Part shown: positions 52,094-64,000 of the stretch, piece by piece
Position numbering within the stretch: position 1 is the stretch's first letter
Layout: each line of letters starts with the position of its first letter
Assembly: GCF_014204915.1 (NCBI RefSeq)
Contig: NZ_JACHMH010000001.1
Span: 7,403,501-7,467,500, forward strand
From: Crossiella cryophila
Lineage (GTDB): Bacteria; Actinomycetota; Actinomycetes; Mycobacteriales; Pseudonocardiaceae
DNA: 64,000 nucleotides
Reading direction: 5' to 3'
Position numbers and translations under genes: made by a program
The notes under the pieces: generated by a model
The model's database searches: none
What the model was told of the DNA's origin: nothing
Seen by the model: the letters and a program-made list of their open reading frames with translations, nothing else

Positions 52094-52516
52094 TCACTCC
52101 GGTAACGCCACCGTCTGCCGGAGCTGGCGGGCGCCGCGGGCGGTGTCCAGGTACTCGCGCACCCGGTGGATGAGTCCATTGTGGACCTCGAAGACCAGGC
52201 AGTAGTCGTTGGCGTAGTGGGTTCCGTCGGCCAGGGTGGCGGTCATGGTCTCCTCGACGATCACCGTCTCGCCCGCGGTGTGGAAGCCGCGGAAGGTGAC
52301 CTGGACGTCGCTGGTGAACAGGCGCGGGAAGTCCACGGCCAGGAAGTGCGCGATCTGGTCGCGGCCGATCATGTGGTTGGTGATGTCCAGGGCGAGGGCG
52401 GTGGCGTTTCCGGCCGGGGCAAGCCATTCCGCGTCGGGGGTGAAGACCGCGGCGATCCGCTCCGGGTCGCGGGTGCTGAAGGTCGCCCATGCCTGCTGGA
52501 TGATGTCGGCGCTCAT
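52094..52516 (-). CDS. SnoaL/NTF2-like protein
   Basis: 140 residues. The cone-shaped NTF2 fold is suggested by WATFSTRDPERIAAVFTPDA, the IGRDQIAHFL segment and the final strands YCLVFEVHNGLIHRVREYLD. Family members act as cyclases, hydroxylases, isomerases or binding proteins. It is 10 bp downstream of the oxidoreductase gene and last in the lanthipeptide operon, so a tailoring or helper role is possible; it may also be unrelated. Confidence 0.8.
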   Translation of the reverse strand: MSADIIQQAWATFSTRDPERIAAVFTPDAEWLAPAGNATALALDITNHMIGRDQIAHFLAVDFPRLFTSDVQVTFRGFHTAGETVIVEETMTATLADGTHYANDYCLVFEVHNGLIHRVREYLDTARGARQLRQTVALPE

Positions 52517-52526
52517 GCCGCCGAGG

Positions 52527-53522
52527 CTAGGGATGTCCGGCGGGGGTTGGCTGGCGAGATTCCGGCATGGTCACCCTGGCCAGGATGTCGGTGAGGTCGC
52601 GCAGGGCGGCGTCGCGGTCCTCGGTCATCCGGACCCCGGCGGTGTTGAGCACGACCTCGTCGACCCCGGCCTCCCGATAGCGGCGCAGGCCGGTGGCGAT
52701 CTCCGGGGCCGAGCCGGTGAGCACCACGTCCGCCTCGACCAGGGCGCGGGCGCTGAGGCCGGGCTGGGCGGGGTGCACGCGCAGCCCGGCCCGGCGGAGC
52801 ATGTCGATGTAGTGCGGGGCGGAGAGGTGTTCGCGGGTCGCGTTCAGGGCGACCAGGTGCGGATCGCGGCCGTAGCGGCGGACCGCGACGTGCACCACCG
52901 CGACGATCCTCGGCGTGGGGCGCCCGGCTTTGGCCGCGCCGGCCTCGAGTTCCGGGCGCAGCACGGTGCGGATGTAGTCCGGCGGGGTCATCCAGGTGAT
53001 CGCGGCGTCGGCGAGTTCCCCGGCCAGCCGGGCGGCGGCCGGCCGCAGCACGCCGAGGCCGAGTTCGACCGGCGGGTGTTCGAGCGGGGGCAGGGCGCCG
53101 TGCATGCGGTACTCGCCGCCCTGGTGGTTGACCACCTCACCGGCGAGCAGGCCGCGCAGGATGGTGAGGTAGTCGGCGATGGCGGTGAGCGGGCTGGGAT
53201 AAGGCTTGCCGTGTAAGGACTCCACGAGTTCCGGGGTGCCCGCGCCGATGCCCAGTACGGGGCTGTGGCCGGTGAGCGCGGCCAGGGAGCGGGCGTGCAG
53301 GGCGGCCTCGTAGGGGTGGCGCAGGGCGGTCAGGGTGACGCTGGTGCCCACCGGTGTGGCCAGGCCCGCGCCGGCCAGGTAGGCGAAGCCCTGGTGGGTT
53401 TCCAGGCCGAGGGACTGGCCCTGCCACAGCCGGTGCGCGGCGGTGTCGTGGACGAGTTGGGCGAACGGGGTGAGGTCGGCCGGACTGGCTGGCATCACCG
53501 GGACGAAGATCGAGGTTTTCAC
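52527..53522 (-). CDS. Luciferase-like (LLM) F420- or flavin-dependent oxidoreductase
   Basis: 331 residues from GTG 53522, overlapping the exporter stop (GTGA), which fixes the start. TIM-barrel luciferase-like family: GQSLGLETHQGFAYLAGAGL, VTLTALRHPYEAALHARSLA, LGIGAGTPELVESLHGKPY and the C-terminal YREAGVDEVVLNTAG. Within lanthipeptide loci, members of this superfamily (LanJC in class V lexapeptide) reduce dehydroalanine to D-alanine with F420H2. Here it is coupled to class I genes, so it may reduce or oxidise residues of the peptide. Cofactor not decided by sequence. Confidence 0.85.
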   Translation of the reverse strand: MKTSIFVPVMPASPADLTPFAQLVHDTAAHRLWQGQSLGLETHQGFAYLAGAGLATPVGTSVTLTALRHPYEAALHARSLAALTGHSPVLGIGAGTPELVESLHGKPYPSPLTAIADYLTILRGLLAGEVVNHQGGEYRMHGALPPLEHPPVELGLGVLRPAAARLAGELADAAITWMTPPDYIRTVLRPELEAGAAKAGRPTPRIVAVVHVAVRRYGRDPHLVALNATREHLSAPHYIDMLRRAGLRVHPAQPGLSARALVEADVVLTGSAPEIATGLRRYREAGVDEVVLNTAGVRMTEDRDAALRDLTDILARVTMPESRQPTPAGHP

Positions 53523-55315
53523 GTGTGCTCCGGCTGGTATCCGGCGGCCTGCAGGTTGAACAGGTAGGCGTAGTGGCCGCCGAGGCGCATCAGTTCGGCG
53601 TGCGTGCCCTGTTCGACCAGTTTGCCGCCCTCGATGACGATGATCTTGTCGGCGATCCGGACGGTGGAGAACCGGTGCGCCACCAGCAGGCTGGTGGAGC
53701 TGTCCGCGATGCTGCGGAAGCGTTGGAAGATCTCGGTTTCCGCTTCGGCGTCGATGGAGGCGGTGGGTTCGTCCAGCACCACGATCGGCGCGGCCCGCAT
53801 GAACGCCCGAGCCAGGGCGACCTTCTGCCACTGGCCGCCGGAGAGCTGGTGGCCGTTCTCGAAGTGGCGGCCCAGCATGGCGTCGTAGCCGTCCGGCAGC
53901 GTGTCCACAATGGAGTCCGCACCACTGGCCTCGGCGGCCCGGCGGACGCGTGCGGTGTCGGCGCGGTGTTCGATCTGGCCGAAGCCGATGTTGTCCCGCA
54001 CCGGGAGTTCGTACTTGATGTAGTCCTGGAAGATGACCCCCAGGTTGCGGCGCAACTCCTCCAGGTCATATTCCTCGATCGGCACGCCCTCCAGGAGGAT
54101 CTGGCCGCCGGTGGGTTCGTAGAGCCGGGTGAGCAGTTTGACCAGGGTGGTCTTGCCCGCGCCGTTCTGGCCGACCAGGGCCACGCAGTTCCCGGCAGGC
54201 AGGGTGAAGCTGACCCGGTCCAGGACCTGGTCCTCGGTGCCGGGGTAGGTGAAGCTGACGTCCCGGAACTCGATGCCCTGGCGCAGTTTCGCCGGGAAGG
54301 CACGGTTGCCGCCGCGGATCTGCCGCTCGGGCAGGTCGAACAGCTCGAACAGGTTGCTCACGAACAGCTTGTTCTCGAACAGGTTTGCCACGCCCACCAG
54401 CAGGCTGTGCCCGGATGCCTGCACGATCCCGATCGCCTGGAGGTACCCGGCCAGCTCGCCGAGTCGACCAGTCTCCATTGTGGACAGCATCGCGAACACC
54501 AGGGCACCGGCCGAGATCAGCACGCTGAGCAGTCCGAACACGCCGAGGGACACCGACTGGCGGCGGGTCAGGTCGCGGTCCACCTTGAGGAAACGGCGCA
54601 CCTGGTCCCGGTAGGCGCCGATGAGGTGCTCGCCGAGCTGGAAGAGCCGGACCTCCTTGAAGGAGTGGTCCGTGGTGGTCAGGTACTGCAGGTAGAAGAG
54701 TCGGCGACGGTCGGCGGCCCGGCCGTACTCGATCTCGTACATCTTCTTGCCGTACCACATCTGCGCGATCGCGGACGGGATCGGCGAGAGCAGGATGAGC
54801 ACCGCGACCCAGAAGTTCCAGGAAAACAGCACCGCGGACACGGACAGGATGGTGATCAGTTCGCGGGCGAAGCCGAGGGTGTCGGTGAAGAGCTGGTGGA
54901 TGCGTGATCCGCTGCTCTCCTGGAAGGCCCGCTGCAACTTGTCGTAGGAATCAGCACTCTCGTAGTCCTGCAGGTCCATCCTGGTGCCCTTGCGCATCAC
55001 CTCCTCGCCGACCGCGGTGGACAGGTGCAGGCGCAGCACCGAGTCCAGATAGCCGTGCCACACCCCGAGCAGGTGCGCGAACACGGACACGGCCAGGATC
55101 AGCAGGCCCACCGCGAGCACCGCCGAGCCGTGCTCGCCCACACCGCCGGCGGTGATCGCGTCGGCCACGGTCTGCACCGCGCTGGCGGTGAGTTGCAACT
55201 GCACCGCGGGCACCACCGACACCGCGACGGTGACCACGATCAGCGCCAGCACCCGCAAGGGACTGAGGTCCCACAGCATCTTGGCGATCCGCAGCCAGTG
55301 GTTCTTGGAGTTCAT
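53519..55315 (-). CDS. lanT: Lanthipeptide ABC exporter (LanT, no peptidase domain)
   Basis: 598 residues from ATG 55315, overlapping the LanB stop (ATGA). Half-transporter: six membrane helices in about 1-330, then ATPase with Walker A LVGQNGAGKTT near 385, signature QLSGGQWQKVALARA, and Walker B VVLDEPTASID. There is no N-terminal C39 peptidase, as expected for class I systems, so leader removal needs another protease, and no LanP is seen nearby. It probably exports the modified peptide. An immunity role is less likely because ABC immunity proteins are usually split. Confidence 0.9.
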   Translation of the reverse strand: MNSKNHWLRIAKMLWDLSPLRVLALIVVTVAVSVVPAVQLQLTASAVQTVADAITAGGVGEHGSAVLAVGLLILAVSVFAHLLGVWHGYLDSVLRLHLSTAVGEEVMRKGTRMDLQDYESADSYDKLQRAFQESSGSRIHQLFTDTLGFARELITILSVSAVLFSWNFWVAVLILLSPIPSAIAQMWYGKKMYEIEYGRAADRRRLFYLQYLTTTDHSFKEVRLFQLGEHLIGAYRDQVRRFLKVDRDLTRRQSVSLGVFGLLSVLISAGALVFAMLSTMETGRLGELAGYLQAIGIVQASGHSLLVGVANLFENKLFVSNLFELFDLPERQIRGGNRAFPAKLRQGIEFRDVSFTYPGTEDQVLDRVSFTLPAGNCVALVGQNGAGKTTLVKLLTRLYEPTGGQILLEGVPIEEYDLEELRRNLGVIFQDYIKYELPVRDNIGFGQIEHRADTARVRRAAEASGADSIVDTLPDGYDAMLGRHFENGHQLSGGQWQKVALARAFMRAAPIVVLDEPTASIDAEAETEIFQRFRSIADSSTSLLVAHRFSTVRIADKIIVIEGGKLVEQGTHAELMRLGGHYAYLFNLQAAGYQPEHT

Positions 55316-58300
55316 GCCTTGGCCTCCGGTGCGGGTCGGCCGCCGATGGCGCGCAAAGCCTGCCGCCACACGGCGTAGAGGTGCGATTCCCGGCGCAGGT
55401 CGATCGGCAGCAGCCGGTTGATCTGCATGTGCGCCAGGCTGCCCAGCACGCTGGACTCGGCGCCCCACAGCACGCCCACGGCCGCGGCCTCGCGCACCGC
55501 GTGCGCGGCGGCGGCGACCGCTTCCTGTTGCGGGGCCAGGATCTCGTTGATCATCTCGTGGTGCGCGCGGCCCTGTTCGTGCGGGCGGTAGTCCCAGGGC
55601 ACGAGCAGTTCGGTGAGGTAGGCCCGCTGTTGCTGGAACTCGGTGCGGGCCGCCTCGGCGTCCGCGCCACCGCTGTTGGGCAGCAGTTCCATCCGTTCCC
55701 GCGGGGTCAGACCCCATTGCCGGTACAGGGTGTCCACCGCGGCGATGGCGGCGAACTCCGGCCGGATGCCGTCCTTGTCGTTGTGCAGCAAGGTGACCAG
55801 ATCGGCGGTGACATCGCTGTTGGCGGCGAAGAGCGGTTCGACGGTGTCGAAGACGGGCGGGCCGCCGTAGCGTTCGATCTCCGGGGTGTAGCCGGCGATG
55901 GCGGTGTCGAAGGCCAGGCCCTCCTCGGCCAGCTGTCCACTCCAGACAGTCAGGTACCAGAGGAGTTGCGGCGCCACTTCGGGATCGGCCGCACGGAAGC
56001 GCAGTCGCAGGTGCGGGCGCGGGTCCATGTAGCGGATGTAGAACCAGCGGTCGATCAGCCCCTGCTCACGCAGCATCGCGACCAGTTCGCGCAGCCGGGT
56101 GGCGATGACCTCGTCCTGCTGGGTGATGCCCGCGTACAGCTTGAGGAAGGTCCACTGCCCGCCGGGCAGGTGCTGCCGGATGATCTCGGGGGCGGCCGCG
56201 GTGGGTGCGGTCAGGGTGACCTCGCTGCGCGCGGTGTCCGCGCTGTTCCTGGCGATCAACGGGACGACGATCTCCTCCAGGTAGGCCGCGCCCTCGGCAT
56301 CGCGCAGCCACTGCTGGTCGAAGGCGGGCAGCATCTCGTGCACGGTCACCGGTTCCGGACCGCGGTTCAGCTCGGTGGCCAGCTCGTCCAGGCACATCGG
56401 GTGGTCCAGGTCGAGCAGCAGCCGGTTGTCCGCCTCCACCAGGTACACGTGCCGCGGCACCCGCCAGCGCTCCCGCCAGGCCCGTACTTCGGCCGGGAAG
56501 TCCTTGCCCGGCAGGGAGGTCAGGTTCCACTGGGCGGGCCGGAGCACGACCTTGCCGCGAGTGACCCTGGGCAGGAAGGGCATGGTTTCCAGTGGGCCCC
56601 AGCGGAATCCGCAGGGCATGGCGTAGCCGTCGTTGGAGACCTCCAGCACGAACCGGGCCACGTTGGGCGCCACGTGCGGGCTGAGCATGTGGTTCTGGGA
56701 GACCACGACCTGCTTGCCCAATCGCCTGGACCACAGGAAGAACCGGTCCTCGTTGGCGCCGACGCACAGGTCGGCCAGGTCGATCACCCGCTCCGGCGGC
56801 ACCGAGGGCGTGGTGTTCACCGGCACCTCGTACCCGCGCAGCAGCGGACGCAGGGCCACGTTGGCCGCGCGGCCGTGGTTGGGCAGGTAGCACAGTTCGG
56901 CGTAGACGACCTCGGGGCTGAGTTCCTCCTCGCGCCGGGCGTAGCCGCGCAGCCGGTCCACCGCGTCCTCGCCGAGCAGGTCGAAGAACCGGCCGGAGGT
57001 GCGGCCGCCGAAGGCCAGACCCTCCTGCCGCAGCACCGCCCGCCACTCACCGCTGTCTACCGACCGGTCGGTAGAGATCTGTGCGAAGACGTCCAGGGCC
57101 GGGTACAGCGCCAGCGGCGGGGCGTCCTCCGGTGGGGCGAAGCGGTTGAGCCACTCGTCGGTCAGCTCGATCTCGTGGTCACCGGCGCACCAGGCCTGCA
57201 CGGCGAACTCGGTGAGCACCTTGTCGAAGTCCTGTTGCCAGGGCTCCTGGACGTTGTGCGGCAACGGATATCCACGCGGCGGCTCGGTGTAGGTCGGCGG
57301 CGCGTCCAGGCCGTGTTCGGGGCTGAGCAGTTCCAGCACCGGCACCAGCGCGAGCAGCCCGTACCGCTCGGTGAAGGCGTCCCGGTACTGGGCCAGGTGG
57401 TGGTTGTGCCCCGGCAGCGCGGCGGACAGCCGCATCAGGCAGTCCACCGCCTCGGCCACCGCCTCGCCGACCGCGCCGGAGAGGCGGGTCCGCGGCAGGT
57501 CCAGGGTGGCGTCGAGCTGGTAGGTCGGGCCGGTGTGCTCGGGGGTGAGCGCGCGCTGGGCGGCGGTCAGTTCGGCCAGCGCGGCCGGGTCGGGTTCGGT
57601 GGCGGCGCGGTGGGCGAGGTTGATCACCTCGCGCAGCGCCTCGGCGGCCTCACCGGCGGCCTCGATCCCGGCGAGTTGTTTGGCCAGCTGGGCTTCGGGC
57701 TGGGCCACGGTCAGCGGCGGGCGCAGGTCGCTGGTGAGGAAGTTGAGCGTGCGCAGCTCCTCGACCAGGCCGCTCACCCTGGCCGGGTCGACGCCGGGGA
57801 ACTCCTCGGCCAGTCCGGCGAGCAGCTGGGCCAGCGGGATCGGGGTGGCGGCCAGTCTGGTCACCGCCAGCGCCGCGGTGGTGGCCCGGACCCGGACCGC
57901 GCGGTTGTCGTTGTGGCCGTAGATGTCGGCATAGGGCAGCACGAGCCGGTCGCCGCTGCGGTGCACGCTGGAGTTGAGCACCACCCGCAGGTGCGGGCGC
58001 AGCTGCTCGTCGGACTCCAGTTGTTTGATCAGGGTGAGCAGCCAGGCCATGTCGGCGCGGATCCGGTTGTCCCGCAAAGCCGACTCGCCAAGGCAGGCGG
58101 TGGTTTCCGGGCCGAACTCGCCGACGGCCACGCCGGAGAACGCGCCGAAGGGGGTGGGCCGGGTGGTCATCCGGATCAGGTAGCGCAGCAGCCGGGAGTG
58201 CAGCCGCCGGGCGCGTTTGCCAGCCGGGGCGGACTCCCCCGCCCGGTCGAGCGCGTCCACCAGATCGCCGCTGGCGATCGTCAGCGCCCGGCGCACCGCG

Positions 58301-58464
58301 GGCTGGGCGGCCAGGGCGTGCAGGCGTTGCCGGACTTCGGCTCGGGCCTGTTCCGGGTCCTCGGTGCTGGTGGCGAGCAGGTCCTGGAACACCCCGGCGG
58401 GCAGCGCGGGGGCGCGCAGCAGGAAGAAGTCGGCTGGTTCGTAGCGTGGCCCGGCCATGCTCAC
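55312..58464 (-). CDS. lanB: Class I lanthipeptide dehydratase LanB, full length
   Basis: 1,050 residues (GTG 58464 overlapping the LanC stop, or ATG 58458). Both parts of class I LanB are present: the glutamylation domain (about 1-770: RYEPADFFLLRAPALP, TRPTPFGAFSGVAVGEFGP, MPCGFRWGPLETMPFLPRV) and the SpaB C-terminal elimination domain (about 790-1040: WTFLKLYAGITQQDEVIA, DRWFYIRYMDPRPHLRLRF, IAGYTPEIERYGG). It activates Ser/Thr of the precursor with glutamyl-tRNA and eliminates glutamate to give Dha/Dhb. Central enzyme of the locus, next to LanC, as in nisin-like clusters. Confidence 0.95.
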   Translation of the reverse strand: MSMAGPRYEPADFFLLRAPALPAGVFQDLLATSTEDPEQARAEVRQRLHALAAQPAVRRALTIASGDLVDALDRAGESAPAGKRARRLHSRLLRYLIRMTTRPTPFGAFSGVAVGEFGPETTACLGESALRDNRIRADMAWLLTLIKQLESDEQLRPHLRVVLNSSVHRSGDRLVLPYADIYGHNDNRAVRVRATTAALAVTRLAATPIPLAQLLAGLAEEFPGVDPARVSGLVEELRTLNFLTSDLRPPLTVAQPEAQLAKQLAGIEAAGEAAEALREVINLAHRAATEPDPAALAELTAAQRALTPEHTGPTYQLDATLDLPRTRLSGAVGEAVAEAVDCLMRLSAALPGHNHHLAQYRDAFTERYGLLALVPVLELLSPEHGLDAPPTYTEPPRGYPLPHNVQEPWQQDFDKVLTEFAVQAWCAGDHEIELTDEWLNRFAPPEDAPPLALYPALDVFAQISTDRSVDSGEWRAVLRQEGLAFGGRTSGRFFDLLGEDAVDRLRGYARREEELSPEVVYAELCYLPNHGRAANVALRPLLRGYEVPVNTTPSVPPERVIDLADLCVGANEDRFFLWSRRLGKQVVVSQNHMLSPHVAPNVARFVLEVSNDGYAMPCGFRWGPLETMPFLPRVTRGKVVLRPAQWNLTSLPGKDFPAEVRAWRERWRVPRHVYLVEADNRLLLDLDHPMCLDELATELNRGPEPVTVHEMLPAFDQQWLRDAEGAAYLEEIVVPLIARNSADTARSEVTLTAPTAAAPEIIRQHLPGGQWTFLKLYAGITQQDEVIATRLRELVAMLREQGLIDRWFYIRYMDPRPHLRLRFRAADPEVAPQLLWYLTVWSGQLAEEGLAFDTAIAGYTPEIERYGGPPVFDTVEPLFAANSDVTADLVTLLHNDKDGIRPEFAAIAAVDTLYRQWGLTPRERMELLPNSGGADAEAARTEFQQQRAYLTELLVPWDYRPHEQGRAHHEMINEILAPQQEAVAAAAHAVREAAAVGVLWGAESSVLGSLAHMQINRLLPIDLRRESHLYAVWRQALRAIGGRPAPEAKA

Positions 58465-59858
58465 CGGACCAGGAAGGCGGTCAGCCAGGACGGCCGGACC
58501 GGGCTGACCGCGGCCAGCAGGGTCAGCGCCACCCCGGTCGAGCCGGTGAGCAGCGCGGGGCTGTCCACGAACACACCCGGCTCCTCCTCGTCCCGGAAGA
58601 CCAGCGGGTTGGCCGGATCGGCGAACCCGAGCAGTTCGGTCAGCAGGCGTGCCGTGTGCTCGCGGGCCAGTGCGCTGCCCGCGGCGGCGAACTCCTGGCA
58701 GATGGCCAGCAGCCCGGCCACGCCGTGGCAGAAGGTCGGCGAGAGCACCGGTTCGGCCTCGCTGCGCCGCAGCACGCCCTCGAATGCCTCCATCGCGGCG
58801 GTGCGCAGCTGGTCATCGCCCAGGGCGTCGGCCACCGCGAGCAGGGACACGGCCACGCCGGCGGTGCCGTAGCACCAGGCGATCTGGTCGTGCGGGTTGC
58901 TCGGCCGGACCTCCTCGCCGGTGGCGGCGACCGGGATCTCGGTGGCCCACACCGGTCCGTGCGGATCGGCGCGGCGCACCGCCAGCAGCCAGTCGGTCAT
59001 CCGCCGGATGGCCTCCTCCTGACCTGGCCTGCGCAGTCCGCGCTGCCAGGCCACGGCCAGTGCGGCGACCGCGCCGGGCACACCGTGCGCCATGCCGAGG
59101 TTGAGGTAGCCGCCGGGGAAGTCCCGCGGGTCGCGGCCCAGTGGCGCGCAGAGTTCGGGGGCGATCAGCCAGCGGCGGGTCAGGGTGAGGTCGCGGGGCG
59201 GGGCGCTGAGCCAGATCAGGTAGTCCAGCAGCTTGTCCGCGGCGGCGTGCAGGGCCTGGTCGGGTTCGGCGATCGAGCACAGGTAGGCCAGCGTGCCGGC
59301 CGCGCCGCTGATCATGTCGTAGTCGGAGTCGCTGACCGCGCGCTCGACCATGGGCAGGTCCAGGTCGGCGATCTGGGCGGCGAACTGGTCGTGCAGCCTG
59401 CCAAGGCTGGGCCCGAACCGCGGCTCGGCCTCAACACAGCCCGCCACGCACAGCGCGAGGCCGCCAGTGCCCGAGAACACCCCCGGCGCGAGCAGCGGCT
59501 GGGCCTGGGTGCCGGCCACCGCCTCCCGGATGAAGGCGAAACCGGCGCTGAGCGAGCGCGCGCTCTCTACCTCATTGGGGGCGGCCGCCGAAGCGTGCAC
59601 ATGGAGTAATGCGATTCCGGCGTGCCCATACCCGAAGCTGGGGAAGTACCATTCCATCGGATGCTTCGTCTGCTCGGTGAATCGCATTACATGATCGATG
59701 ACCGTGGCGGAATCCGCTGTTCTCCGCGCAACCTCGCAGGCGACTTCCCGGGCTTTGGCCGCAAGCGCGCCCGGAACAACTCCATGCCAGGCGGCGACGG
59801 AATCATCGGCCACCAATACCAGGTTGGGAGCGGAACCCCGCTCCGATTCTGCGCGCAC
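58461..59858 (-). CDS. lanC: Lanthipeptide cyclase LanC
   Basis: 465 residues from GTG 59858, chosen for AGGGG 6 nt upstream; upstream in-frame starts would run into the hairpin. Double-barrel LanC with all zinc ligands: Cys in IAWCYGTAGV and Cys-His in SPTFCHGVAGLL, plus the acid/base His in NLGMAHGVPG. It closes thioether rings by adding Cys thiols to Dha/Dhb. It is the first gene after the precursor and overlaps LanB by 4 bp. Confidence 0.95.
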   Translation of the reverse strand: MRAESERGSAPNLVLVADDSVAAWHGVVPGALAAKAREVACEVARRTADSATVIDHVMRFTEQTKHPMEWYFPSFGYGHAGIALLHVHASAAAPNEVESARSLSAGFAFIREAVAGTQAQPLLAPGVFSGTGGLALCVAGCVEAEPRFGPSLGRLHDQFAAQIADLDLPMVERAVSDSDYDMISGAAGTLAYLCSIAEPDQALHAAADKLLDYLIWLSAPPRDLTLTRRWLIAPELCAPLGRDPRDFPGGYLNLGMAHGVPGAVAALAVAWQRGLRRPGQEEAIRRMTDWLLAVRRADPHGPVWATEIPVAATGEEVRPSNPHDQIAWCYGTAGVAVSLLAVADALGDDQLRTAAMEAFEGVLRRSEAEPVLSPTFCHGVAGLLAICQEFAAAGSALAREHTARLLTELLGFADPANPLVFRDEEEPGVFVDSPALLTGSTGVALTLLAAVSPVRPSWLTAFLVR

Positions 59859-59921
59859 AACAACCCCTGTTCGTCGGCTTTCCAACCGCCCGGCGCACGG
59901 GCAGGATGCGGTAGGTTGAGC

Positions 59922-59962
59922 GGCGGGTGCTGCCGGGTCGTCGACACCCGGCAGCACCCGCC
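59922..59962. terminator. Hairpin between precursor and LanC, probable partial terminator
   Basis: Perfect 17-bp stem 59922-59938 / 59946-59962 with a 7-nt loop, 24 bp past the precursor stop and 64 bp before LanC. Such a hairpin between precursor and enzyme genes usually lets the precursor be made in excess while part of the transcripts read through. Confidence 0.85.
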
Positions 59963-59986
59963 TTCAGCCCGTTGAGCTGCGCTTAT

Positions 59987-60166
59987 TTAGCGCTTCGGAC
60001 AACCGGCGGTGCAGGCGCCCTGGGTGCACTGGCAGGTGAACCTCGAGCAGAGCGGGGTCCGGGTGCAGGCCAGTCGGGTGATCACACTGGTAATCGACAG
60101 CGGCTGGGCCTGGCCATTGGCCGCGGCCGGAGTGCTGACCCTGGCATCCAGATCAAAGGCATCCAT
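59987..60166 (-). CDS. lanA: Class I lanthipeptide precursor peptide LanA
   Basis: 59 residues from ATG 60166, preceded by AAAGGTGA; an upstream GTG (60178) would overlap that site. The leader carries FDLD at residues 4-7, the LanB recognition box of class I leaders, then a short Ala/Gln-rich stretch to about residue 23 (GQAQPL). The core region (about 24-59) begins SITSVITRLAC, similar to the ITS start of nisin, and has Cys at 34, 40, 45, 47, 52 and 56. Each Cys has a Ser/Thr three or four residues earlier (30, 37, 41, 44, 48, 53), including a nisin ring-B-like TPxC. Up to six rings are possible. The exact cleavage site is not determined. It ends in basic PKR. Confidence 0.9.
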   Translation of the reverse strand: MDAFDLDARVSTPAAANGQAQPLSITSVITRLACTRTPLCSRFTCQCTQGACTAGCPKR

Positions 60167-60382
60167 TGGATACTTCACCTTTCCATCAGTTCTCCGGTCA
60201 GTCGACCGGATGACATTCCTGGCGCGAATGTCTCGCGCTCACTTCGGACCCTAGGCGGGGCCGCGTACACAGCGCTGTCACAGGATTGCGGTGACCCGCT
60301 GACCACGTCTTACTGTGAGTAGTGCCTTCCCCAGTACCCGCACGCTAGGGTGTCCTCATCCTGTGCTAATTGGGGGTTTGAC
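60167..60382. promoter_or_regulatory. Divergent promoter region of lanA and the SARP regulator
   Basis: 216 bp separate the two start codons. It contains the inverted repeat CCGGTC-N4-GACCGG (60194-60209) in the lanA leader, a 10-bp palindrome ACAGCGCTGT (60269-60278) and GTCAC-N9-GTGAC (60277-60295). On the minus strand TAGGGT near 60247-60252 could be the lanA -10. GGGGG at 60372-60376 is the ribosome site of the SARP GTG start. Which element the SARP binds is not shown. Confidence 0.5.
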
Positions 60383-62245
60383 GTGCCCGAACGCGACAAC
60401 AGGCTTTACTGCGAGGTACTCGGTGCGCTGGCCGCACGCCGCGGTCCGGTGGACATCGAGCTGGGCTGGTCCCGGCAACAGGCGGTGCTCGCGGTCCTGC
60501 TCACCCGGATGAACCAGCCGGTGCCCGTTGAGGCACTGGTGGAGGCGGTGTGGGCGGATTCGCCGCCACAGGGCGCGCGCAACACGGTGCAGACCAACAT
60601 CAGCCGGTTGCGCCGCGCACTGCGGCCCGCCGGCGCCACGCACGACCGGGACGCGGTGGTGCTGCGCACCGACGCTGGCTACCTGCTGCGCGGCGCGCCA
60701 GACCAGCTGGACGCGCTGGTCTTCGAGCAGGAACTCGACGCCGCCCAGGAACACCAGCGGGCCGGACGGCTGGCCGCGGCCACCGAGTCGGTCAGCTCGG
60801 CGCTGGGCCGCTGGCGCGGTGAGCCGTTCAGCGGCCTGGACAGCCCATACCTGCACGCACACCGGCTGCGATTACGGGAGTCCCGCCTGCTCGCCCAGGA
60901 ACTGTCCGCGGCGCTGTCACTGGACCGCGGTGAGCACCGCTCGGTGGTGGCCGAGCTGACCGCGCTGGTGACCCGCAACCCGCTGCGGGAACGGTTGCGG
61001 GAGTTGCTGATGCTCGCGCTGTACCGCTCGGGCAGGCAGGCCGAGGCGCTGGGCGTGTTCCAGGAGGCCCGCACCGCACTGGCCGACCAGCTCGGCATCG
61101 ATCCCGGCCCCGCGTTGCGCGGCCTGCACCAGCGCATCCTGACCCGCGATCCGGAACTGTCCGCGCCACCGCGCCGGGCCTGCCCGCCGGTGGTGATCAC
61201 CCCGGCGGTGGCGGTGGAGCAGCTGCCTGCCGATCCGCTCTCCTGCACCGGCCGGGACGCCGAACTGCGGCGGCTCACCGGTTCCGCGGCCGAGGCGGAG
61301 ATCCACGTGCTGGACGGGATGCCCGGCATCGGCAAGACCACCCTGGCCGTGCGCGCCGCCCGGCTGCTCGCGCCCGACTACCCGGACGGCACGATCTTCC
61401 TGCGGCTCAACGCTTTCGCCGCCGGTCAGGAACCGCTGTCCGCGCACGCCGCGCTGGGTGGCCTGCTGGAGGCGGCCGGGTTGCCCGCCGCGGCCATGCC
61501 GGACACCGAGCACGGGCGGTCCGCGCTGTGGCGGGAGTCGTTGCGGGACAAGCGAATGCTGCTGGTGCTGGATGACGCGGCCGGGCACGAGCAGGTCCGG
61601 CCGCTGTTGCCGGGCCCTGGCCGCTGCCGGGTGCTGATCACCAGCAGGCGGCGGCTGAGCGCGCTGGAAGGGGTGCGGTCGCTGGAGCTGAACCCGCTGC
61701 CGCTGGAACAGGCCGCCCGGCTGTTCCAACAGCTGACAGGTCCGCGCGAGCAACCGGCCGATCCGGCCGCGACCCGGCAGCTGGTGTCGTTGTGCGGCGG
61801 GCTGCCGCTGGCGATCACCCTGCTGGCCGGGCGGGTGCGCCACCACCCGCGCTGGACCGACCGCTACCTGGCCGATCTGCTGTCCTCGGCGCGGACCCGG
61901 CTCAGCGAGCTGCACGCGGAGAACGTCACGCTCACCGCCGCCTTCGACCGGTCCTACCGCGGCCTGCCGGCCGAGGCGCGGCGGTTGTTCCGCTGCCTTG
62001 GCCTGTCCGCGGGCGTCGAGGTGGACCTGCCGACCACCTCGGTGCTGGCCGGATTGAGCCCGGCGGAGACCCGGCACGGGCTGGAACTGCTGTACGACAA
62101 CCATTTGCTCACCGAGTCCGCGCCCGGCCGGTACCTGCTGCACGACCTGGTCAAGGAGTACGCGCGCACCCTGGCCGAGCTGGAGGACCCGACCCTGGAG
62201 GCCGAGTTCCACCGATGTCCCGGCCTGACCCAGCGCGCCGGCTGA
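60383..62245 (+). CDS. SARP/AfsR-type regulator with NB-ARC ATPase
   Basis: 620 residues from GTG 60383. OmpR-like winged-helix DNA-binding domain (about 10-95: RNTVQTNISRLRRALR), bacterial transcriptional activation domain (about 100-245, LHQRILTRDPEL at its end), then NB-ARC with P-loop LDGMPGIGKTTLAVRAA near 312, kinase-2 MLLVLDDAAGHEQV and GLPLAI. It is divergent from the lanthipeptide operon, whose likely activator it is. Compared with AfsR it lacks the long C-terminal TPR part. Confidence 0.93.
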   Translation: MPERDNRLYCEVLGALAARRGPVDIELGWSRQQAVLAVLLTRMNQPVPVEALVEAVWADSPPQGARNTVQTNISRLRRALRPAGATHDRDAVVLRTDAGYLLRGAPDQLDALVFEQELDAAQEHQRAGRLAAATESVSSALGRWRGEPFSGLDSPYLHAHRLRLRESRLLAQELSAALSLDRGEHRSVVAELTALVTRNPLRERLRELLMLALYRSGRQAEALGVFQEARTALADQLGIDPGPALRGLHQRILTRDPELSAPPRRACPPVVITPAVAVEQLPADPLSCTGRDAELRRLTGSAAEAEIHVLDGMPGIGKTTLAVRAARLLAPDYPDGTIFLRLNAFAAGQEPLSAHAALGGLLEAAGLPAAAMPDTEHGRSALWRESLRDKRMLLVLDDAAGHEQVRPLLPGPGRCRVLITSRRRLSALEGVRSLELNPLPLEQAARLFQQLTGPREQPADPAATRQLVSLCGGLPLAITLLAGRVRHHPRWTDRYLADLLSSARTRLSELHAENVTLTAAFDRSYRGLPAEARRLFRCLGLSAGVEVDLPTTSVLAGLSPAETRHGLELLYDNHLLTESAPGRYLLHDLVKEYARTLAELEDPTLEAEFHRCPGLTQRAG

Positions 62246-63129: not shown

Positions 63130-64000
63130 TCAGACACCACCGGACCGACTGTCCGCACCCGATTTCCGGCCGGCCTGGCCGGTACGCGGCCGCGCGCGGG
63201 TGGTGCGGGCCAGGTAGGCGATGCCGTCGAACTCCGCACCCAGCCGCACGGCCACGGTCTCCTTCTTCAACGCGGGCCAGAACCCGATCACCGACCCATA
63301 GGCCCGCATCCGCTGCTTCCCGTCCAGCCACTCCCGCACCACCGGATCGGCCCCCGCGCCCCGCAGATCCACCAAATGATCACCCCCAGCCTGCGCGAGC
63401 TGCCATTCCAGGGTGCCGGCCTCGGCCGGATCCAGCTCGAACTCGGCCAACTCACTGGTCCCCAGCTTCATGGCCTGGAACCCACCCTCATTGGTCACCA
63501 ACGCGAGCGCGTAGTAACCATCCCCCAGCCAATCCCGCAGCTCAGCACCGAGCGCGGCCTCCTTGCTGGACCGGGTGGCCGCGGCCAGATGCCCGTTGTG
63601 CGCCCACACCATCGCCCGAGCATCGGGCTCGGCCAGAATCCGCCGCAACGCCTCGGCCATGGTCCGATCCCGCAGGTGCCCCCCGGCCTGTCCCAGCGTC
63701 GGCAAGGTCCGGATCTCCGCGGCCCGATCCACCGCCCAGCCATGCCATTCCGCCTCCCGCCACCCGTCATCGTCGGCAGGATGCGCGGCCAGCCAAGCCA
63801 CCGTCTCCGCCACCACCGCCCGCGCCGCGAGCACCTCGGACTGGGCGGCCCCCGGCCGCACCCCGGGGATCTTCCGCCACAGCTGCCGGAAGGTCTCGCT
63901 GATGATCCGCCCCACGCTGAGCTTGGTGAACTCCACCCGCAACGCCTTGACCGCCTGCCGGAACGCGATGGCCCGGTCACTGTCCACTGTGTCCAGATAC
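63130..64000 (-). CDS. Erythromycin esterase-family protein, 5' end beyond the right edge
   Basis: At least 290 residues; the frame is open to the last base and the family is near 400 residues, so the start is missing. Motifs of the EreA/succinoglycan-esterase superfamily are seen: LRDRTMAEALRRI and AMVWAHNGHLAAA, the latter with the conserved His. Members hydrolyse ester or lactone bonds, including macrolide rings in EreA/EreB, but most actinobacterial homologues are uncharacterised. It is far from the PKS genes, so a link to macrolide resistance is unproven. Confidence 0.88.
   Translation of the reverse strand, partial: YLDTVDSDRAIAFRQAVKALRVEFTKLSVGRIISETFRQLWRKIPGVRPGAAQSEVLAARAVVAETVAWLAAHPADDDGWREAEWHGWAVDRAAEIRTLPTLGQAGGHLRDRTMAEALRRILAEPDARAMVWAHNGHLAAATRSSKEAALGAELRDWLGDGYYALALVTNEGGFQAMKLGTSELAEFELDPAEAGTLEWQLAQAGGDHLVDLRGAGADPVVREWLDGKQRMRAYGSVIGFWPALKKETVAVRLGAEFDGIAYLARTTRARPRTGQAGRKSGADSRSGGV

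What the first reader, a model, noticed from the sequence alone, without database searches (positions are those of the whole stretch)
52094..60166. Class I lanthipeptide locus with a six-Cys precursor and a coupled luciferase-like oxidoreductase
Full-length LanB, LanC and a peptidase-less LanT are coupled by 4-bp overlaps to an LLM-family oxidoreductase and an NTF2-like protein. The LanA core has six Cys, each with a Ser/Thr at the proper distance, and an ITS start plus a TPxC motif as in nisin, but its C-terminal part (TCQCTQGACTAGCPKR) matches no lantibiotic I can recall. F420-dependent LLM reductases that make D-Ala are documented in class V loci; in a class I locus this would be an unusual pairing. 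A new, heavily bridged and possibly D-residue-containing lanthipeptide is predicted.
Basis: partly seen in the sequence, partly recalled or inferred. Interest (0 to 1): 0.82.

Follow-up and report, generated by a model that had tools for sequence, protein, structure and literature searches.

The report
Class I lanthipeptide with LanJC-type reductase
This actinomycete carries a small gene cluster for a heavily bridged, nisin-like peptide together with a reductase that probably turns some of its residues into mirror-image amino acids, a trait known from other classes of such peptides.

Summary
The locus is real: a class I lanthipeptide cluster (SARP regulator, LanA, LanC, full-length LanB, LanT, LLM reductase) in a Crossiella-type genome. 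The block is kept in 10 of 10 loci found in 5 genus genomes; LanC-LanB-LanT-LLM recurs in 17 Streptomyces loci. The LLM is of LanJC type: it branches with LLMs of class II, class V and daptide-like loci, apart from generic LLMs (100/100), and its model is closest to F420 enzymes; the genome encodes F420 synthesis. Published LanJC enzymes reduce Dha/Dhb to D-Ala/D-Abu. Best reading: LanB and LanC make six thioether rings and the LLM reduces one or more unringed dehydro-residues. Ser24, the only invariant Ser/Thr without a Cys in reach, is a candidate target or a leader-cleavage mark. Corrections: the NTF2-like gene does not overlap the LLM and is in 4 of 10 loci; LanJC is known beyond class V. 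Of 394 Actinomycetes genomes (88 with LanB, 24 with a LanJC-like LLM), only this one showed both side by side. Chemistry is untested.

The parts
59987..60166 (-). lanA precursor, 59 aa, FDLD leader; core assumed to begin at Ile25 (59990-60094)
   Evidence: NF038155 31.2 bits over cut-off 20; a relative in 10 of 10 Crossiella loci; ATG with GAAAGG upstream
58461..59858 (-). lanC cyclase, 465 aa (start inferred)
   Evidence: PF05147 143 bits; WCYG and CHG invariant in 10 sequences; their role as zinc ligands is recalled from NisC
55312..58464 (-). lanB dehydratase, 1050 aa, full length
   Evidence: PF04738 545 bits and PF14028 175 bits; PDB relatives 9g04, 5ehk and NisB 4wd9
53519..55315 (-). 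lanT ABC exporter without a peptidase domain, 598 aa
   Evidence: PF00005 118 bits, PF00664 below its cut-off, no peptidase family among 5 hits
52527..53522 (-). LLM-family reductase of LanJC type, 331 aa
   Evidence: PF00296; best NCBIfam hit TIGR03564 with 132.8 bits, below its cut-off 234.25; place in tree; AlphaFold2 pLDDT 95.4 and F420-enzyme neighbours
52094..52516 (-). SnoaL_2/NTF2-like protein, 140 aa; doubtful member
   Evidence: PF12680 56.1 bits; 10-nt gap after the LLM; present in 4 of 10 loci
60350..62245 (+). SARP/AfsR-type regulator, divergent from lanA
   Evidence: BTAD, Trans_reg_C, NB-ARC; next to lanA in 10 of 10 Crossiella loci
63130..64000 (-). erythromycin-esterase-like gene, cut by the window end; possible accessory gene
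   Evidence: PF05139; homologues at 13 of 13 Streptomyces clade-1 loci and 4 of 10 Crossiella loci, this one included

Best explanation
A class I lanthipeptide cluster in which LanB dehydrates Ser/Thr of the LanA core, LanC closes six (methyl)lanthionine rings (most likely T6-C10, T11 or T13-C16, S17-C21, T20-C23, T24-C28, T29-C32 in core numbering), and the LLM protein, a LanJC-type F420H2-dependent reductase, reduces one or more left-over Dha/Dhb residues to D-Ala or D-Abu; LanT exports the product and a protease not found in the locus removes the leader. Shown by sequence: genes, families, conserved linkage, predicted F420-type fold, an F420 synthesis gene in the genome. Inferred: the reduction, the ring pattern, and which residue is reduced (candidates T2, S3, T11 or T13, or Ser24 of the precursor, just before the assumed core).
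Against: No mass or chiral data. The TIGR03564 score is below its curated cut-off, as for 6 of 6 other LanJC-like LLMs scanned. The 53 rows were gathered by score with a profile of the Crossiella LLMs, so their split from generic LLMs is partly a matter of choice. Foldseek's own list is mixed: ranks 1-7 F420 enzymes, rank 8 an alkanesulfonate monooxygenase; in the second look rank 15 and the first flavin monooxygenase differ by only 0.7 in Z. No report of a D-residue in a native class I lanthipeptide was seen in the searches listed. The sequence does not fix the residue that would be reduced. In all, 10 of the 27 non-Crossiella LanB loci lack the LLM, so class I synthesis does not need it.
Confidence: 0.75

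Rival explanations
1. The LLM protein is an F420H2-dependent reductase of something other than an internal Dha/Dhb, for example of an N-terminal 2-oxoacyl group formed from an exposed Dha/Dhb, so that the peptide gets a hydroxyacyl cap.
For: Ser24 and Thr26 lie at the assumed N-terminus and column 24 is Ser in 21 of 21 precursors; N-terminal lactate made by a short-chain dehydrogenase is reported for class I (PMC7268733, section 8).
Against: LanJC relatives with tested function reduce Dha/Dhb (PMC11162475, PMC8498797, passages); the cleavage site is unknown.
Confidence: 0.1
2. The LLM protein is a flavin monooxygenase that oxidises a side chain or a thioether sulphur.
Against: Best NCBIfam hits are F420 families; nearest folds are F420 enzymes; the branch holds LLMs of class V and class II loci.
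Confidence: 0.05
3. The LLM gene is a neighbour without a part in maturation, and the product is a plain class I lanthipeptide.
For: The NTF2-like gene shows that neighbours can be casual (4 of 10 loci); 10 of 27 non-Crossiella LanB loci have no LLM.
Against: Overlap with lanT in the window and presence right after LanT in 27 loci of two bacterial families.
Confidence: 0.07

Closest known systems
LanJC reductases: LxmJ (lexapeptide, class V), MatR1/MatR2 (massatide), the birimositide LLM (class II)
   Same: LLM superfamily, F420 type by predicted fold, encoded beside lanthipeptide synthesis genes; window LLM 38-55% identical to 12 LLMs of class V loci, 51% to that of its own genome's class V locus
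   Different: The partners here are LanB and LanC of class I; the LxmJ, MatR and birimositide sequences were not at hand
FDLD-family class I lanthipeptides (NCBIfam NF038155)
   Same: Leader matches the model over its cut-off
   Different: Six-Cys core with a possible interlocked pair in SRFTCQC; no match in solved structures at E up to 10; in 297 genomes of its family a precursor match occurs in the 5 of the genus and one weak match elsewhere
Nisin (core recalled, from no call)
   Same: ITS start, TPxC ring, TCxC pair like nisin rings D/E; LanB related to NisB
   Different: Core differs after ring B; no LanJ in the nisin locus (recalled); LtnJA was added to NisBTC by engineering (PMC10373908, passage)

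Membership tests
Class I lanthipeptide cluster | LanB with glutamylation and elimination domains | tested here: met
   PF04738 and PF14028, both full length
Class I lanthipeptide cluster | Separate LanC cyclase with Cys, Cys, His zinc motifs | tested here: met
   PF05147; C329, C377, H378 invariant in 10; motif role recalled
Class I lanthipeptide cluster | Precursor with FNLD-like leader and Ser/Thr/Cys core | tested here: met
   NF038155; ring pairing
Class I lanthipeptide cluster | Thioether rings in the product | not testable with these tools
   needs mass spectrometry
LanJC reductase | LLM fold of F420-dependent type | tested here: met
   pLDDT 95.4; ranks 1-15 of the second look are F420 enzymes; Foldseek's list mixed from rank 8. 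Cofactor itself not tested
LanJC reductase | Groups with LLMs of lanthipeptide and daptide-like loci rather than general LLMs | tested here: met
   100/100 branch, 53 rows against 9; rows chosen by profile score
LanJC reductase | Groups with the LxmJ, MatR or birimositide LLM sequences | not tested
   named sequences not held; LLMs of class V and class II loci used instead
LanJC reductase | F420H2-dependent reduction of Dha/Dhb to a D-residue | not testable with these tools
   needs an enzyme assay
TIGR03564 F420 LLM subfamily | score over the curated cut-off 234.25 | tested here: not met
   132.8 bits

The most novel reading that the evidence does not exclude
A native class I lanthipeptide family, spread over Crossiella and Streptomyces, carries D-Ala/D-Abu made by a LanJC reductase, and the invariant Ser24 before the ring region is the conserved reduced residue; a second class I family (S. 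noursei type, 2 Cys and 7 Ser/Thr in the assumed core) would then be rich in D-residues.
Probability: 0.35. Interest if true: 0.65.

Novelty: new variant of a known kind. Interest (0 to 1): 0.5.

Why it matters
It would place natural D-amino acids, reported for lanthipeptides of other classes, in the nisin-like class I, and it gives 27 related loci (21 aligned six- to seven-Cys precursors) in which the target rule of a useful enzyme can be read and tested. The survey of Walker and others (PMC7268733, section 8) said in 2020 that LanJA- and LanJB-type enzymes in class I loci suggest D-residues there, but that these had been observed only in class II.

Tried and rejected
NTF2-like protein as a partner: rejected as a general part (4 of 10 loci). 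Two separate origins of class I LanJC: the tree splits 23 and 4 rows, but one clade is not rejected (p-AU 0.248). Solved-structure match for LanA: none at E up to 10. Erythromycin-esterase-like partner: 3 papers listed, passages of one opened (PMC8939145: a graspetide locus, function unclear). Literature on class I with LanJC, LLM, luciferase-like enzymes or D-residues; FDLD leader and Crossiella. I opened passages of 12 papers (and section 8 of PMC7268733); the rest I saw as listings only. Among these I saw no report of a D-residue or of a LanJC test in a native class I lanthipeptide. Subscription papers (such as the 2024 JACS study of MaeJC and WmnJC, known to me only from passages of the review PMC13348032) and the Walker supplements were not readable, so earlier notice of this pairing is not excluded. 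A published Crossiella class I locus (PMC9415966, passages) has Amycolatopsis marina as closest match; I could not relate it to this one. CofD (PF01933) was too unspecific to show F420 synthesis (in 10 of 14 controls), so CofH was used (over cut-off in 3 of 14 controls).

Limits: one search scored 5 and one search scored 3 candidates per genome, so misses are possible; the fetched stretches were 12.5 to 19.9 kb. The 9 unsettled LanJC-like loci are L127, L132 (near a contig end, M16 peptidase only), L133 and L137 (LanKC only by the look of the N-terminus), L134, L136, L138, L141, L144. The class V marks are homologues of proteins of L087 and L101, whose lyases match HopA1 in Pfam; the L087 kinase had no Pfam hit, that of L101 matched APH. 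The 5 Crossiella loci (L047-L051) repeat loci already held and were not counted again. Three generic LLM rows (L083, L085, L086) were dropped before the tree and over-long reading frames cut to 345 residues. L145, L147, L148 and L149 have long branches and unsure places there. Of the 10 LanB loci without LLM some are short (L072 4960 bases, L075 12179, L076 14433).

Full report
Observation. Pfam and NCBIfam scans confirm LanC, full-length LanB, an ABC exporter without a peptidase domain, an LLM protein and an FDLD-family precursor on the minus strand. The joins LanC/LanB, LanB/LanT and LanT/LLM are four-base overlaps; the NTF2-like gene follows after a 10-nt gap. A divergent SARP regulator lies upstream of lanA. 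The window lies in a 10.06 Mb single-contig genome; contigs of two genus mates (G002, G003) have the lengths of Crossiella records found, from which I take the genus.

Core peptide. With Ile25 as first residue (an assumption), the core has 6 Cys and 9 Ser/Thr. All Cys can be paired with separate Ser/Thr at distance 3-5 in 2 ways, at distance 3-7 in 4 ways; 19 and 232 of 5000 shuffled cores allow any such pairing. Rings S17-C21 and T20-C23 would interlock, as nisin rings D/E do (recalled). Three Ser/Thr remain free.

Conservation. The precursor search over 5 genus genomes, the own one included, gave 10 loci with E below 1e-13, at least one in each; the next match had E 0.06. All 10 keep SARP, LanA, LanC, LanB, LanT and LLM in order; the NTF2-like gene is in 4 of 10. 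Over 297 genomes of the family, 6 had a precursor match: the 5 of the genus and one weak match at E 8.4e-4. A LanB-profile scan of genome contigs gave 32 loci: 5 Crossiella repeats and 27 others. Of the 27, 17, all Streptomyces, have the LLM right after LanT; 10 have none, some of these short. lanA was found in 15 of the 17, not in L053 and L054.

Precursor family. In 21 aligned precursors (10 Crossiella, 11 Streptomyces; 18 distinct rows) six columns always hold Ser/Thr: 24, 30, 35, 44, 48, 53 of the window peptide; Cys columns 34, 45, 47, 52 are invariant. Five of the six Ser/Thr precede a Cys at ring distance. Ser24 does not (next Cys ten residues on). It is either a leader-cleavage mark or the conserved target of the reductase. 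Four more Streptomyces loci have a different precursor with 2 Cys and 7 Ser/Thr in the assumed core.

The LLM protein. In the own genome three LLMs score 639, 628 and 379 bits with the family profile, the next 53. The third lies beside a HopA1-type lyase and a flavoprotein gene, which with the neighbouring peptidase and precursor-like genes I read as a class V locus. In 394 class-wide genomes 24, the own one included, have such an LLM at E up to 1e-60. Of 24 loci fetched from the 23 others, 10 hold homologues of the class V kinase and lyase, 3 LanM, 2 a LanKC N-domain, 9 are unsettled, and none shows a LanB hit. LanB is in 88 of the 394. So the LanB-LanJC pairing is rare in the class but steady in this lineage. 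The tree puts 53 LanJC-like LLMs apart from 9 generic ones at 100/100; 23 class I rows form a clade (100/98), the four S. noursei-type rows lie elsewhere, but a single class I clade is not rejected (p-AU 0.248). The window LLM is 38-55% identical to 12 LLMs of class V loci and 54-57% to 5 of the Streptomyces class I clade.

Mechanism and literature. Passages read: LxmJ reduces Dha to D-Ala in lexapeptide (PMC8498797); deletion of MatR1 leaves Dhb in place of D-Abu, and MatR1 and MatR2 are called LanJC (PMC11162475); birimositide gave the name LanJC in class II (PMC7268733; section 8 read: D-residues in class I only suggested then); a LanKC/LanJC pair occurs in a daptide locus (PMC10036551); LtnJA has been combined with NisBTC by engineering (PMC10373908). 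Hence the most likely step here is reduction of left-over Dha/Dhb in a class I peptide. The residue and the reduction itself remain untested.

Noticed in passing
window 63130-64000; L052-L063, L071, L068: An erythromycin-esterase-like gene follows the LLM in 13 of 13 Streptomyces clade-1 loci, lies beyond the SARP gene in 4 of 10 Crossiella loci, and follows LanT in Saccharothrix L068, where no LLM was found (PF05139 for L060, L037, L068 and the window). Role unknown.
   Followed up: partly
L052, L056, L057, L059, L060, L062, L063, L071, about 3.4-7.9 kb: A lasso peptide gene set (Asn synthase, PqqD, Transglut_core3, ABC exporter; Pfam for L060) lies just upstream of lanA in 8 of 13 Streptomyces clade-1 loci by tblastn; some of the other 5 have little upstream sequence.
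   Followed up: partly
L064-L067: Second class I plus LLM family in Streptomyces: very similar precursors with 2 Cys and 7 Ser/Thr in the assumed core; two further genes of L064 (a likely response regulator and methyltransferase, named by eye) recur downstream in 4 of 4.
   Followed up: partly
L044 (G000:C1:6436000-6455900): The same genome carries a second copy of the cluster with a diverged precursor that lacks the last ring Cys.
   Followed up: yes
L087 (G000:C1:5116500-5136400): A likely class V lanthipeptide locus with its own LanJC-type LLM in the same genome.
   Followed up: partly
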